A stretch of 13,229 nt of DNA from Rhodospirillaceae bacterium CCH5-H10 (GTDB lineage Bacteria > Pseudomonadota > Alphaproteobacteria > Reyranellales > Reyranellaceae). Below the pieces are notes generated by a model. That model had not been told where the DNA came from and did no database searches. It saw only the letters and a list, made by a program, of their open reading frames with translations. Positions 4,147 through 13,229 of the stretch are shown here, in pieces; position 1 is the stretch's first letter; each line of letters starts with the position of its first letter. The position numbers and the translations under genes were made by a program. The DNA is taken from contig LSKJ01000630.1 of the NCBI GenBank assembly GCA_001557035.1, positions 1-13,229 on the forward strand, given 5' to 3'.

Positions 4147-5937
4147 TCAACGTACCCGCGCTTTCTGCGTCGCCTCGACATCGACGACGCCCTTGGCGGA
4201 GATCACGACGCCGTAGTCCCGTAGCGCCGTCTCCACCGTGATCATGCCGTCGAGCACGTCGTCGGCCACCTTGGCCGGATCGCGTTCCAGCGGGTTGCCG
4301 TAGCCGCCGCCCGCCGGGCCGTAGCAGACGAAGCGGCCATCCTTGCCGATGTTCATGTGCGGAACCTTCGAGGGCAGGGCGCGGTCAGCCTGGCCGGGAA
4401 CCATCAGGTCGAGCCTGGCCGGCATGCCCTCGCTGCCGCCCAGGAAACCCCACGGCCGGTAGCGATGACCTTCGCCTTCGACCGAGGCGCCGCCGTCGCT
4501 GAGGAAAGTGAACTCGCGGACCGAGCCCAGCCCGCCGCGCCACTTGCCGGCGCCGGCCACATCCTCGCGCAGTTCGTAGCGTAGCACGCGCAGCGGCAGG
4601 TGGGTCTCGATGTCCTCGATCGGGTTGTTGCGCGTGTTGGCATAGAGCGTGTCGACGGCATCCATGCCGTCCTTGCCCAGCCGCCCGCCGTAGGAGCCCT
4701 CGAAGATCTCCATGTGCACCCAGTGGGTCTCGTCCCTGAGACCGGAGAAGGCGATGACCTTGAGGTTGCCGATACCCGCCGAGACGTTGCCGGGCATCGC
4801 CTGCGACAGCGCCTTCATCACCGTGTCGGCGAGCTGGTTGCCGGGGCAGAAGCGCGCGATGGTCGGGGCGGGAAAGGTCGGATTGGCGAGGCATCCCTTG
4901 GGCGCCACGATGGTGATCGGCCGCAGGAGACCCGCATTCACGGGAATGTGGCCGTGGACTTCGGTGTCGAGCAGCACCGATCGGATGGTGAGCCAGATCG
5001 CGATGTCCGCGGTGCCTTCGAGCGGCATGTTGATCGGCCGGTCGGGCACCTGCGGCGCCGTGCCGGTCAGATCCACCACCAGCTGCTCGTCCTTCTTGGT
5101 GATGGTGACGACGATCGGGAGTTCCTTCTTGGAGGGATCGTCGCTGTCCAGATAACCGTCGATGGCGGTCTCGGCGCGATAGATGCCGTCGGGCAGTTTG
5201 GCAATCGCCTGACGCATCAGCCGCTCGGCATGATCCATCAGCGCGTCGCAGGCCTGCTCGAAGGTTTCGAGCCCGTAGCGTTCCACCAGCTCGACCATGC
5301 GCTCCGCGCCGATGCGGGCGGCGGCCACCTGGGCATCCATGTCGCCAACCACGAGGTCGGAGGCGCGGATATTGTCGCGCACGATCTGCCACACCGCGTC
5401 GTTCCGCACGCCGCGGTCGTAGACCTTGATCGCCTTGAACTGCAGGCCCTCGGCATAGGCGTCGATCGCCTCGACGATGCCGCAGGAGCCCGGCGACAGC
5501 GCGCCGATGTCGAGATGATGCGCCGTCGTTGCGGCGAAGGCGATGAGCCGTCCCTGCACGAAGACAGGCACGATGAAGGCGACGTCGGGTCCGTGGCTGG
5601 CGCCGGAGTAGGCATCGTTGTGCATGATCACGTCGCCGGGCCGGATCGTATCGCCGCGCTTCTTCAGGATACGCTGGATGCCCCGCACATAGCCCGGGAT
5701 CGGACCCGACTGCAGCGGCGTCGACTGCGCCGATTCGGCAAGACCCCTGCCTTCTGCGTCGACCAGTGCCGCTCCGAAATCCTCCGACTCGCGGATGATC
5801 GAGGAGTAGCTCATGCGCATCAGCTTGTAGCCCATCTCGACGGCGATGTTCTCGAGCGCGCCCTGGATCACGCTGCTGGTGATCGGATCGATGCGATCGG
5901 GCTTGGTCGCGGGCTGACGCAGCGGCTGGGTGCTCAT
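4147..5937 (-). CDS. hyuB: Hydantoinase B / 5-oxoprolinase-type subunit (HyuB)
   Basis: The 596-residue product is the B subunit of the ATP-dependent hydantoinase/oxoprolinase/acetone-carboxylase superfamily, which acts with HyuA to hydrolyse cyclic amides such as N-methylhydantoin or 5-oxoproline. Landmarks are the opening DPITSSVIQGALENIAVEMG (17-36), RESEDFGAALVDAEGR (49-64), HNDAYSGASHGPDVA (106-120) and TTAHHLDIGALSPGS (137-151), which carry the family's conserved Asp/His residues (D108, H115, H140, H141, D143), and a C-terminal GPAGGGYGNPLERDP segment. At about 600 residues it fits hydantoinase B; acetone carboxylase alpha subunits are much longer and need a gamma subunit, which is absent. 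The ATG at 5937 overlaps the hyuA stop by four bases (ATGA), implying translational coupling. The stop lies four bases from that of the convergent SDR gene. Confidence 0.95.
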   Translation of the reverse strand: MSTQPLRQPATKPDRIDPITSSVIQGALENIAVEMGYKLMRMSYSSIIRESEDFGAALVDAEGRGLAESAQSTPLQSGPIPGYVRGIQRILKKRGDTIRPGDVIMHNDAYSGASHGPDVAFIVPVFVQGRLIAFAATTAHHLDIGALSPGSCGIVEAIDAYAEGLQFKAIKVYDRGVRNDAVWQIVRDNIRASDLVVGDMDAQVAAARIGAERMVELVERYGLETFEQACDALMDHAERLMRQAIAKLPDGIYRAETAIDGYLDSDDPSKKELPIVVTITKKDEQLVVDLTGTAPQVPDRPINMPLEGTADIAIWLTIRSVLLDTEVHGHIPVNAGLLRPITIVAPKGCLANPTFPAPTIARFCPGNQLADTVMKALSQAMPGNVSAGIGNLKVIAFSGLRDETHWVHMEIFEGSYGGRLGKDGMDAVDTLYANTRNNPIEDIETHLPLRVLRYELREDVAGAGKWRGGLGSVREFTFLSDGGASVEGEGHRYRPWGFLGGSEGMPARLDLMVPGQADRALPSKVPHMNIGKDGRFVCYGPAGGGYGNPLERDPAKVADDVLDGMITVETALRDYGVVISAKGVVDVEATQKARVR

Positions 5938-12257: not shown

Positions 12258-13229
12258 ATGACCCGCCAGACCAAAGTGCTGCGCCTGCCGACCGCCGGCC
12301 CGCAGGACACGGCGCCGCTCGCCGCCGCCATCGCGGCCGGCGACGTCGACGCCCGGAGCATCGTGGCCATCGTCGGCAAGACCGAGGGCAATGGTTGCGT
12401 CAACGATTTCACCCGGGGCTATGCCACGCTGGCGTTGAAGCTGGTGCTGGCGGAGTCGCTGGGCTGCCCGCTGGCAGATATCGAGAAGCGGGTTGCCATC
12501 GTGATGTCGGGCGGCACCGAAGGCGGGCTGTCGCCGCATCTGCTGATCTTCTGTCGCGAGGAGGTGTCGTCGCCGGCTTCGGCGGGGCCGCGGCTCGCCA
12601 TCGGCGTCGGCCTCACGCGGCCCTTCAAACCCGAGGAGATCGGCCGGGCGGCGCAGATCGAGGAGACGGCGGCGGCAGTGACGCTGGCCCTCAAAGACGC
12701 GGGTATCGCCGGGCCTTCCGACGTGCATTTCGTCCAGATCAAGTGTCCGCTGCTGACCAAGGAGCGGATCGAGGAAGCGGCCCGCCGTGGCGCTGTGACG
12801 GCAACTGCCGATACCTATCATTCGATGGCCTTGTCACGCGGTGCCTCGGCGCTGGGCGTGGCGCTGGCGCTGGGCGAGATCGGGAACGCGCCGGAAGAGG
12901 CGGTCTGCAAGGACTGGTCCCTGTTCTCACGCGTCGCCAGCACATCGGCGGGCGTGGAACTGCTGCGCAACGAGATCGTGGTGCTGGGCAATGCTAAGGG
13001 CTGGGCGGGCGATCTCGTGATCGGCCACGATGTCATGAAGGACGCCATCGATGCCGAGGCCGCGCGGCGCGTGCTGGCGGCTCTGGGTGGCGAGACGGTC
13101 GCGGTGCTGGCCAAGGCCGAAGCCTCGCCGACCGGCGAGATCCGCGGGCGGCGGCATACGATGCTGGACGACAGCGACATCCATTCGACCCGTCACGCCC
13201 GCGCCCTGGTGGGCGGCGTGCTGGCCGGC
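12258..13229 (+). CDS. Ring-opening amidohydrolase, cyanuric acid hydrolase/barbiturase (AtzD/Bar) family, C-terminus off the right edge
   Basis: The first 324 residues of a protein that is about 360-370 long in this family are present. Family members hydrolyse one amide bond of cyanuric acid or barbituric acid, using three Ser-Lys dyads in a three-fold domain repeat. Visible signatures are VGKTEGNGCVNDFTRGYAT (39-57, K41), VMSGGTEGGLSPH (82-94, S84), VQIKCPLLT (159-167, K162), SMALSRGASALGVALALGE (189-207, R194), SRVASTSAGVEL (224-235, S228/S230), AKAEASPTGEIRGRRHTMLDDSDI (split around K286 and RGRRHTM 296-302). Thus two dyads and the lysine of the third can be seen; the third serine lies past the edge. 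The ATG at 12258 is one base after the permease stop, so it is in the importer operon. Cyanurate versus barbiturate specificity cannot be settled from this part. Confidence 0.93.
   Translation, partial: MTRQTKVLRLPTAGPQDTAPLAAAIAAGDVDARSIVAIVGKTEGNGCVNDFTRGYATLALKLVLAESLGCPLADIEKRVAIVMSGGTEGGLSPHLLIFCREEVSSPASAGPRLAIGVGLTRPFKPEEIGRAAQIEETAAAVTLALKDAGIAGPSDVHFVQIKCPLLTKERIEEAARRGAVTATADTYHSMALSRGASALGVALALGEIGNAPEEAVCKDWSLFSRVASTSAGVELLRNEIVVLGNAKGWAGDLVIGHDVMKDAIDAEAARRVLAALGGETVAVLAKAEASPTGEIRGRRHTMLDDSDIHSTRHARALVGGVLAG

What the first reader, a model, noticed from the sequence alone, without database searches (positions are those of the whole stretch)
4147..13229. Divergent module pairing HyuAB with an AtzD/barbiturase-type hydrolase and a dedicated ABC importer
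Two unrelated ring-opening enzymes, the ATP-dependent hydantoinase subunits and an AtzD/Bar-family amidohydrolase, flank a polyamine-type ABC importer across one control region. Families and gene order are seen directly. The inference is a catabolic unit for a cyclic ureide, imide or triazine-like compound, perhaps with two sequential ring openings or a broad substrate range. I do not recall this exact combination as a described pathway.
Basis: partly seen in the sequence, partly recalled or inferred. Interest (0 to 1): 0.75.

Follow-up and report, generated by a model that had tools for sequence, protein, structure and literature searches.

The report
Nitrogen-controlled cyclic ureide scavenging module
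A bacterium of the genus Reyranella carries a conserved gene unit with an importer and two unrelated ring-opening enzymes, facing two back-to-back promoters of the kind used during nitrogen shortage, probably to harvest nitrogen from ring-shaped urea-like compounds such as cyanuric acid and hydantoins.

Summary
Window 4147-13229 holds hyuB-hyuA (-) divergent from a four-gene ABC importer plus atzD (+; cut off by the window end). AtzD is a cyanuric acid amidohydrolase by family score and active-site residues, not a barbiturase. Of 29 Reyranella-type loci with enough upstream sequence, 28 keep HyuAB and 28 all four importer genes, 27 both; in 65 genus genomes AtzD and HyuA are both present in 42, single in 4 and 3, absent in 16. 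New here: the window's only two sigma-54-type promoter matches lie in the 123-bp control region, one facing each way, pointing to nitrogen control. The importer is 'polyamine-type' by fold only: in 15 of 17 other alphaproteobacteria it neighbours a PF01177 racemase-type gene and in 3 of 17 a true PuuE allantoinase, so a cyclic ureide is the likelier cargo. AtzD and HyuAB each occur with this importer without the other, so they look like parallel ring-openers, not sequential steps. Biuret hydrolase, on another contig, occurs almost only in AtzD+ genomes (26 of 27). Substrates are inferred. New variant of a known kind.

The parts
4147..5937 (-). hyuB, hydantoinase/oxoprolinase B subunit (596 aa)
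   Evidence: PF02538, 505 bits; NCBIfam CapB equivalog not met, 285 of 1000 bits; HyuAB kept in 28 of 29 Reyranella-type loci with enough upstream sequence
5934..8012 (-). hyuA, hydantoinase/oxoprolinase A subunit (692 aa), overlaps hyuB by 4 nt
   Evidence: PF01968, PF05378, PF19278; best PDB relative N-methylhydantoinase 7hk5, 683 bits; ATP motifs at residues 7, 290, 355
8047..8062 (-). sigma-54-type (-24/-12) promoter match TGGCGCGGCTCTTGCT upstream of hyuA
   Evidence: 2 matches in the window, 0.05 expected, 0 of 200 shuffles with 2; upstream of hyuA in 23 of 35 Reyranella upstream regions strict, 25 loose
8109..8124 (+). sigma-54-type (-24/-12) promoter match TGGCATGGGGCTTGCT upstream of the importer operon; begins 27 nt before the ATG, so the mRNA may be leaderless (inferred)
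   Evidence: upstream of the ATPase gene in 36 of 37 Reyranella upstream regions strict, 37 of 37 loose
8136..9158 (+). ABC importer ATP-binding subunit (PotA-like, 340 aa)
   Evidence: PF00005 plus PF08402 TOBE_2; best NCBIfam TIGR03265; all 25 of 184 families shown are below cut-off
9214..10503 (+). solute-binding protein, PotD fold, twin-arginine N-terminus (429 aa)
   Evidence: PF13416, 69.6 bits; model m001cfbd88237 pTM 0.71, matches polyamine and other binding proteins; R11 and R12 invariant in 25 rows
10523..10546 (+). inverted repeat with 10-bp arms (CCTCTCCCCC / GGGGGAGAGG, 4-nt loop) between the binding-protein and permease genes
   Evidence: read; function inferred
10555..11412 (+). 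ABC importer permease 1 (PotB-like)
   Evidence: PF00528; PotB model 139 of 348 bits
11414..12256 (+). ABC importer permease 2 (PotC-like)
   Evidence: PF00528; PotC model 121 of 326 bits
12258..13229 (+). atzD, cyanuric acid amidohydrolase, truncated by the window end (alternative start 12228)
   Evidence: NF052395 464 bits, cut-off 360; PF09663; 6bum 389 bits against barbiturase 5hwe 246 bits; K51/S94, K172/S240, K296 and R63, R204, R325, numbered from 12228 (alignment, positions and the translation)

Best explanation
A nitrogen-scavenging module for cyclic ureides. Under nitrogen limitation sigma-54 RNA polymerase (presumably with NtrC) transcribes both arms from the 123-bp control region. 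The importer brings in a cyclic ureide of the allantoin/hydantoin/triazine class. AtzD hydrolyses cyanuric acid to carboxybiuret/biuret without ATP; HyuAB opens a five-membered ureide or imide ring with ATP. The two act in parallel on related substrates, not in series. Biuret and allophanate are finished by BiuH, AtzE-type and AtzF enzymes encoded at other loci. Shown: genes, families, active-site residues, conserved linkage, promoter consensus, co-occurrence with biuret hydrolase. Inferred: sigma-54/NtrC control, the importer's ligand, HyuAB's substrate, flux to biuret.
For: Linkage: of 29 Reyranella-type loci with at least 8.4 kb upstream of AtzD, HyuAB in 28 and all four importer genes in 28, both in 27 (the other 13 of the 42 loci were too short and not counted). 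Co-occurrence in 65 genus genomes: 42 both, AtzD only 4, HyuA only 3, neither 16; in the 44 of good quality 28/2/1/13. In L017 three importer genes are gone and the fourth is partial, but both enzymes stay. Promoters. AtzD identity. Biuret hydrolase equivalog above cut-off in 27 of 65 genomes, 26 of them AtzD+, with a sigma-54-type site upstream of its transporter operon in 2 of 3 loci examined. Importer cargo: racemase-type neighbour in 15 of 17, PuuE allantoinase in 3 of 17; the L153 racemase's best PDB matches are putative hydantoin racemase 3qvj, 224 bits, and allantoin racemase 5lfd, 165 bits. The AtzD-importer pairing also occurs in Ramlibacter with a distant AtzD and a distant binding protein. 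The binding protein keeps two PotD aromatics but not two carboxylates.
Against: No binding or enzyme data. HyuA relatives of 63-71% identity mostly lack the importer: it is present at 1 of 15 loci fetched, out of 20 genomes outside the genus that matched. None of the 17 importer loci outside Reyranella has AtzD in the fetched stretch. None of the 11 window genes scanned is a PF01177 racemase, and the PuuE-like gene downstream in L001 is far below the allantoinase cut-off (117 of 425 bits). Genus genomes carry several other PuuE-type genes, so allantoin use does not need this unit. 20 of 46 AtzD+ genus genomes have no BiuH above cut-off. AtzF and AtzE homologues also occur in AtzD- genomes. The hyuA-side promoter match is missing in 10 of 35 upstream regions even with the loose pattern. 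Linkage within one genus partly reflects shared descent.
Confidence: 0.6

Rival explanations
1. The importer and AtzD form a cyanuric-acid uptake and opening operon, and HyuAB is a nitrogen-regulated neighbour acting on something unrelated.
For: AtzD plus importer without HyuAB at the locus in L042, L055, L025; HyuAB relatives mostly lie without the importer (1 of 15).
Against: HyuAB sits with the same importer type without AtzD in L153 and L111; a sigma-54-type site precedes hyuA in 23 of 35 upstream regions; both enzymes stay when most of the importer is deleted (L017).
Confidence: 0.22
2. Two sequential ring openings of one larger compound.
For: Both enzymes retained together in 42 of 65 genus genomes.
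Against: Each enzyme occurs with the importer without the other; AtzD's product should feed biuret enzymes, and BiuH tracks AtzD (26 of 27); no natural compound with both rings in series is known to me (recalled).
Confidence: 0.08
3. The ABC genes are a true polyamine importer and the unit is for polyamine-linked metabolism.
For: ATPase and permeases resemble PotA/B/C; fold neighbours include PotD, PotF and SpuD; some sources name relatives of the binding protein as spermidine/putrescine binding.
Against: Scores far below the polyamine cut-offs for the binding protein and permeases, and below for the ATPase (314 of 356 bits); PotD E171 and D257 (numbers recalled) align with M222 and G312; neighbours are racemase-type, allantoinase, AtzD and HyuAB genes.
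Confidence: 0.05
4. The AtzD homologue has drifted to a non-cyanurate ring, so the unit handles only hydantoin-like compounds.
For: Cyanuric acid is said not to be a known natural product (PMC4051656, passages); AtzD has the highest (2 of 3 comparisons) or second-highest dN/dS of the six module genes compared.
Against: Scores 104 bits above the CAH equivalog cut-off; catalytic residues kept, Arg where barbiturase has Gln; BiuH co-occurrence.
Confidence: 0.05

Closest known systems
Cyanuric acid amidohydrolase AtzD/TrzD/CAH (6bum Moorella, 4nq3 Azorhizobium, 4bvq Pseudomonas ADP; organisms partly recalled)
   Same: Family, Ser-Lys dyads and the Arg that barbiturase replaces by Gln
   Different: In the operon of a Pot-type importer and opposite hyuAB; where BiuH is also present in the genus it is on a different contig, 26 of 26 genomes
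ATP-dependent hydantoinase family (N-methylhydantoinase 7hk5; caprolactamase CapAB; 5-oxoprolinase)
   Same: ATP motifs; HyuA matches residues 1-688 of the 1288-residue N-methylhydantoinase end to end
   Different: Separate subunits; below the caprolactamase cut-offs; substrate unknown
Pot-type importer next to a PF01177 racemase-type gene in other alphaproteobacteria (L153, L171-L186)
   Same: Close ABC genes (binding protein 61-84% identical); sigma-54-type site upstream of the ATPase gene in 7 of 19 regions strict, 11 of 19 loose, L042 and L055 included
   Different: Reyranella has AtzD after the second permease and hyuAB divergent; none of the window genes scanned is a racemase
atzDGEHF operon of Pseudomonas sp. 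ADP (gene order: abstract of PMC6219798 in the listing)
   Same: Same AtzD step; AtzE-type, HpxZ-like and AtzF genes exist in G001
   Different: In G001 those genes lie at a separate locus (L170, contig C1; the module is on C2)

Membership tests
Cyanuric acid amidohydrolase (AtzD) | Score above the curated equivalog cut-off | tested here: met
   NF052395 464 bits, cut-off 360, on a truncated protein
Cyanuric acid amidohydrolase (AtzD) | Three Ser-Lys dyads and three Arg of the Azorhizobium enzyme | tested here: met
   K51/S94, K172/S240, K296, R63, R204, R325 in the window; the third Ser lies beyond the window end and is S344 in L001
Cyanuric acid amidohydrolase (AtzD) | Hydrolysis of cyanuric acid to carboxybiuret/biuret | not testable with these tools
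   needs an assay
Barbiturase | Gln at Azorhizobium CAH position 188 | tested here: not met
   Arg (R204 of the window protein); 5hwe scores below all five CAH sequences
ATP-dependent hydantoinase/oxoprolinase | ATP-binding motifs of the A subunit | tested here: met
   DVGGTFTD at 7, DVGGTSAD at 290, GAVPGP at 355 (motif list from PMC8453981 passages)
[quoted passage not shown]
   SHGPD at 114 and TTAHH at 137 fit the CapB spacing H-x2-D...H; not aligned residue by residue
Caprolactamase CapAB | Equivalog cut-offs | tested here: not met
   A 552 of 1000 bits, B 285 of 1000 bits
Polyamine-binding protein PotD | Equivalog cut-off | tested here: not met
   23.8 of 582 bits
Polyamine-binding protein PotD | Acidic residues that bind the amines (E171, D257; recalled) | tested here: not met
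   M222 and G312 at those columns of a weak (26 bit) alignment; aromatics W229 and W255 are W284 and W310
Sigma-54 promoter | TGGCRY-N5-TTGCW at the right place and strand | tested here: met
   two sites, 0.05 expected, conserved; consensus recalled
Sigma-54 promoter | RpoN-dependent transcription | not testable with these tools
   needs expression data
Allantoinase PuuE (for the downstream PuuE-like gene of L001) | TIGR03212 cut-off | tested here: not met
   117 of 425 bits

The most novel reading that the evidence does not exclude
This Pot-type importer is an unrecognised family of cyclic-ureide (allantoin/hydantoin/cyanurate) ABC importers under sigma-54 control. Reyranella uses it with HyuAB and AtzD to harvest nitrogen from oxidised purines, chiefly urate-oxidation products, which include cyanuric acid and triuret. 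That would give cyanuric acid hydrolases a natural, pre-industrial role.
Probability: 0.33. Interest if true: 0.74.

Novelty: new variant of a known kind. Interest (0 to 1): 0.56.

Why it matters
[quoted passage not shown] A genus-wide module that couples AtzD to a nitrogen-type promoter pair, an ATP-dependent hydantoinase and an importer whose relatives sit beside hydantoin/allantoin-racemase-type genes makes the urate-oxidation idea testable with one binding protein, two enzymes and one growth assay. It also warns that 'spermidine/putrescine' names given to relatives of this binding protein may be wrong.

Tried and rejected
Looked for HyuAB beside AtzD outside Reyranella: 0 of 38 loci (several of these contigs are short); the importer (3 or more genes over 50% identity) in 2 of 38 (L042, L055; L043 is cut by its contig end). 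Looked for AtzD beside the importer in 17 other alphaproteobacteria: 0 of 17. Asked whether HyuAB generally travels with this importer: 1 of 15 loci fetched (L153); 5 further genomes with a match were not fetched. Fold search with the binding-protein model gave polyamine, sugar and dinucleotide binders with nearly tied Z, so the fold does not name a ligand. Barbiturase, polyamine import and sequential opening were considered and set aside (see rivals). Looked by eye for a conserved enhancer (NtrC-type) site in the alignment; none was evident. Allophanate hydrolase was not specific to AtzD+ genomes (49 of 65 above cut-off) and AtzE only weakly so (40 of 46 AtzD+ against 11 of 19 AtzD-, p 0.018). 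Paper searches for a described HyuAB-cyanurate combination: 2 papers, neither on that combination by its listed term counts; Reyranella with cyanuric acid, 0; hydantoinase, oxoprolinase, cyanuric, 0; searches on neighbouring topics, seen as listings and abstract starts only unless a paper is named in the report, did not show it: 12; 4; 25 papers, 20 listed; 2; 3; 42 papers, 20 listed; 0. Only open-licence papers are held, and Seffernick 2012 (PMC3415516) was not available, so absence from print is not shown.
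Full report
What is there. The window belongs to a Reyranella: the AtzD of R. aquatilis is 96% identical; the window's own assembly is not held and the nearest genome shares 38% of its sampled words. From 4147 to the end it holds hyuB and hyuA on the minus strand and, divergent from them, an ABC ATPase, a solute-binding protein, two permeases and an AtzD-family gene on the plus strand. hyuA and hyuB overlap by 4 nt, the permeases are 1 nt apart, and the second permease gene ends 1 nt before the likely atzD start at 12258. atzD is cut off by the window end.

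AtzD. It scores 464 bits on the NCBIfam equivalog for cyanuric acid amidohydrolase, cut-off 360. Its best PDB relatives are five cyanuric acid amidohydrolase sequences, with barbiturase behind. In the alignment of the R. aquatilis copy to the Azorhizobium enzyme, the catalytic Lys and Ser and the three Arg are kept; in the window they are K51, R63, S94, K172, R204, S240, K296 and R325, and the last Ser, outside the window, is S344 in L001. The Arg at CAH position 188 is Gln in the barbiturase subgroup and Lys in a Bacillus subgroup (PMC4051656, passages); here it is Arg.

HyuAB. HyuA matches the N-terminal half of N-methylhydantoinase 7hk5 end to end (683 bits), carries the three ATP motifs of this family (motif list from PMC8453981, passages), and is below the caprolactamase cut-off. 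It is an ATP-dependent cyclic-amide hydrolase by family; its substrate is unknown.

Conserved linkage. Of the 80 AtzD loci returned (427 relatives were found and the best 80 kept), 42 are Reyranella-type. Of these, 29 have at least 8.4 kb upstream of AtzD: 28 have hyuA and hyuB, 28 have all four importer genes, 27 have both. The exceptions are L025 (no hyuAB) and L017 (importer mostly deleted, both enzymes kept). In 65 genus genomes, AtzD and this HyuA are both present in 42, AtzD alone in 4, HyuA alone in 3, neither in 16 (two AtzD remnants counted as absent); in the 44 genomes of good quality the counts are 28, 2, 1 and 13. Of the three HyuA-only genomes only G059 is one contig; in G018 and G034 the contig ends inside or just after the binding-protein gene. 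HyuB passes a stricter threshold in 43 of the 45 HyuA+ genomes. In 32 of the 42 both genes lie on one contig, 1.7 to 7.9 kb apart; in the other 10 they are on different contigs of fragmented assemblies. Some loci and some G genomes may be the same organism drawn from two collections. In G024 the module is gone except for the end of atzD, with flanking genes still present (L116); in G004 an AtzD remnant sits after the second permease (L113); G059 has hyuAB and importer but no AtzD (L111). Common descent explains part of this, but the split cases show that the pieces can separate.

Control region. The pattern TGGCRY-N5-TTGCW occurs twice in the 13.2-kb window on either strand, both times in the 123 bp between hyuA and the importer: 8109-8124 (+) and 8047-8062 (-); expected 0.05, and 0 of 200 shuffles reach 2. 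The plus site is present in 36 of 37 Reyranella importer upstream regions (37 of 37 with a looser pattern), beginning 27 to 30 nt before the ATG; the minus site in 23 of 35 (25 loose); these are the regions, out of 47 loci given to the call, with an intact gene start and enough upstream sequence. Upstream regions of other genes in the same loci have none: 0 of 31, 39, 29, 28 and 10 for five genes. Of 72 strict sites in 43 loci (the window included), 33 precede the importer, 21 precede hyuA and 18 lie elsewhere. Seven of 19 importer upstream regions from other taxa also have a strict site, 11 loose. Sigma-54 dependence and nitrogen control are inferred from the consensus (recalled); nitrogen control of cyanurate degradation in Pseudomonas sp. 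ADP is known to me only from memory (one search found no held paper).

The importer. The binding protein is a PotD-fold protein (model pTM 0.71) with a twin-arginine N-terminus. In the weak alignment to PotD (26 bits) two tryptophans of the polyamine site are kept but E171 and D257 (roles recalled) become M222 and G312. In a sample of 385 alphaproteobacterial genomes, 20 have a binding protein at E up to 1e-170, 3 of them in the genus. In the other 17, a racemase-type gene lies by the importer in 15 (not L171 or L173); in 13 of these it is the L153 racemase itself or 44-60% identical to it, in L172 and L182 it is nearer the Vineibacter one. A PuuE-type gene lies there in 3 (L153, L178, L182), all scoring 534 to 541 on the allantoinase model, cut-off 424.6. 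The L153 racemase's best PDB relatives are putative hydantoin racemase 3qvj (224 bits) and allantoin racemase 5lfd (165 bits); PF01177 membership was tested and met for L153, L172, L181, L055 and L042, not run on the rest. L153 has importer, racemase, PuuE, GNAT, hyuA and hyuB in one direction and no AtzD. Vineibacter L042 has importer, AtzD, GNAT and racemase; Ramlibacter L055 has the importer divergent from AtzD, with racemase-type and PuuE-like genes. Trees place the Ramlibacter AtzD and binding protein well away from the Reyranella ones: the linked label needs at least 2 changes on the AtzD tree and 3 on the binding-protein tree; on the HyuA tree at least 2. Such changes can be gains or losses. 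Repeated association favours a shared class of ligand.

Downstream metabolism. Biuret amidohydrolase (NF050097) is above cut-off in 27 of 65 genus genomes; 26 of these have AtzD, on a different contig in all 26. The exception, G018, is 77% complete and has partial HyuA and binding-protein genes. In good-quality genomes the table (both, AtzD only, BiuH only, neither) is 19, 11, 0, 14. 20 of 46 AtzD+ genomes lack BiuH above cut-off; some have split or partial copies. In the loci fetched (L167, L168, L169) BiuH lies with an ABC system whose binding protein is BMP-type in L167, and a sigma-54-type site lies 63 and 70 nt upstream of that gene in L167 and L168, none in L169. A second isochorismatase-like gene beside BiuH in G001 (264 bits, below the BiuH cut-off) may be the triuret hydrolase TrtA described as co-occurring with BiuH (PMC7948467, passages); this was not tested. 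G001 also has AtzE, HpxZ-like and allophanate hydrolase genes together (L170), with a small ORF of the AtzG kind by eye.

Mechanism. Most likely: nitrogen shortage activates both arms; the importer takes up a cyclic ureide; AtzD opens cyanuric acid without ATP and HyuAB opens a five-membered ring with ATP; products go to biuret, allophanate, ammonia and CO2 through enzymes elsewhere. The statement that uric-acid oxidation can yield cyanuric acid and triuret (PMC7948467, passages) suggests oxidised purines as one natural source. This last step is the least certain.

Comparison and novelty. Each enzyme belongs to a known family, so the parts are not new. The combination of HyuAB, AtzD and a Pot-type importer under two divergent sigma-54-type promoters was not found in searches of the held, open-licence papers. 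I therefore rate it a new variant of a known kind.

Noticed in passing
window 8109-8138: The importer ATG lies 27 nt after the start of the sigma-54-type element (27-30 nt in 37 Reyranella upstream regions), so the transcript would begin 1-4 nt before the start codon: a predicted leaderless mRNA from a sigma-54 promoter.
   Followed up: partly
L001:11118-12308 (+): A PLP-dependent SelA/DgaE-like gene follows atzD in L001 and is in the fetched stretch of 28 of 36 Reyranella-type loci with at least 2.5 kb downstream; role unknown.
   Followed up: partly
L001:17690-18580 (+): A divergent PuuE-like (polysaccharide-deacetylase fold) gene is in 26 of the same 36 loci and lies within 1.1 kb of the second permease where AtzD is lost (L111, L113); a possible third cyclic-amide opener. 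A relative of 58% identity is near the Ramlibacter AtzD (L055).
   Followed up: partly
L044, L048, L053, L064, L075 (L046 in part): AtzD in Moorella, an enterobacterium, Melaminivora and others sits with an FdrA-type gene (tested on L053) and two further shared families that look by eye like the oxamate carbamoyltransferase set (allFGH naming: PMC12625717, passages), suggesting an energy-conserving cyanurate breakdown.
   Followed up: no
window 10523-10546: Inverted repeat between binding-protein and permease genes, as often seen where the binding protein is made in excess.
   Followed up: no
window 807-2114 (-): NtaA/DmoA-family flavin monooxygenase (523 bits, cut-off 280) with a PCuAC copper chaperone and two SDR genes between it and hyuB; the monooxygenase also occurs near several related loci.
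   Followed up: no
window 3-527 (-): Part of dnaX (DNA polymerase III gamma/tau) by eye from the translation.
   Followed up: no
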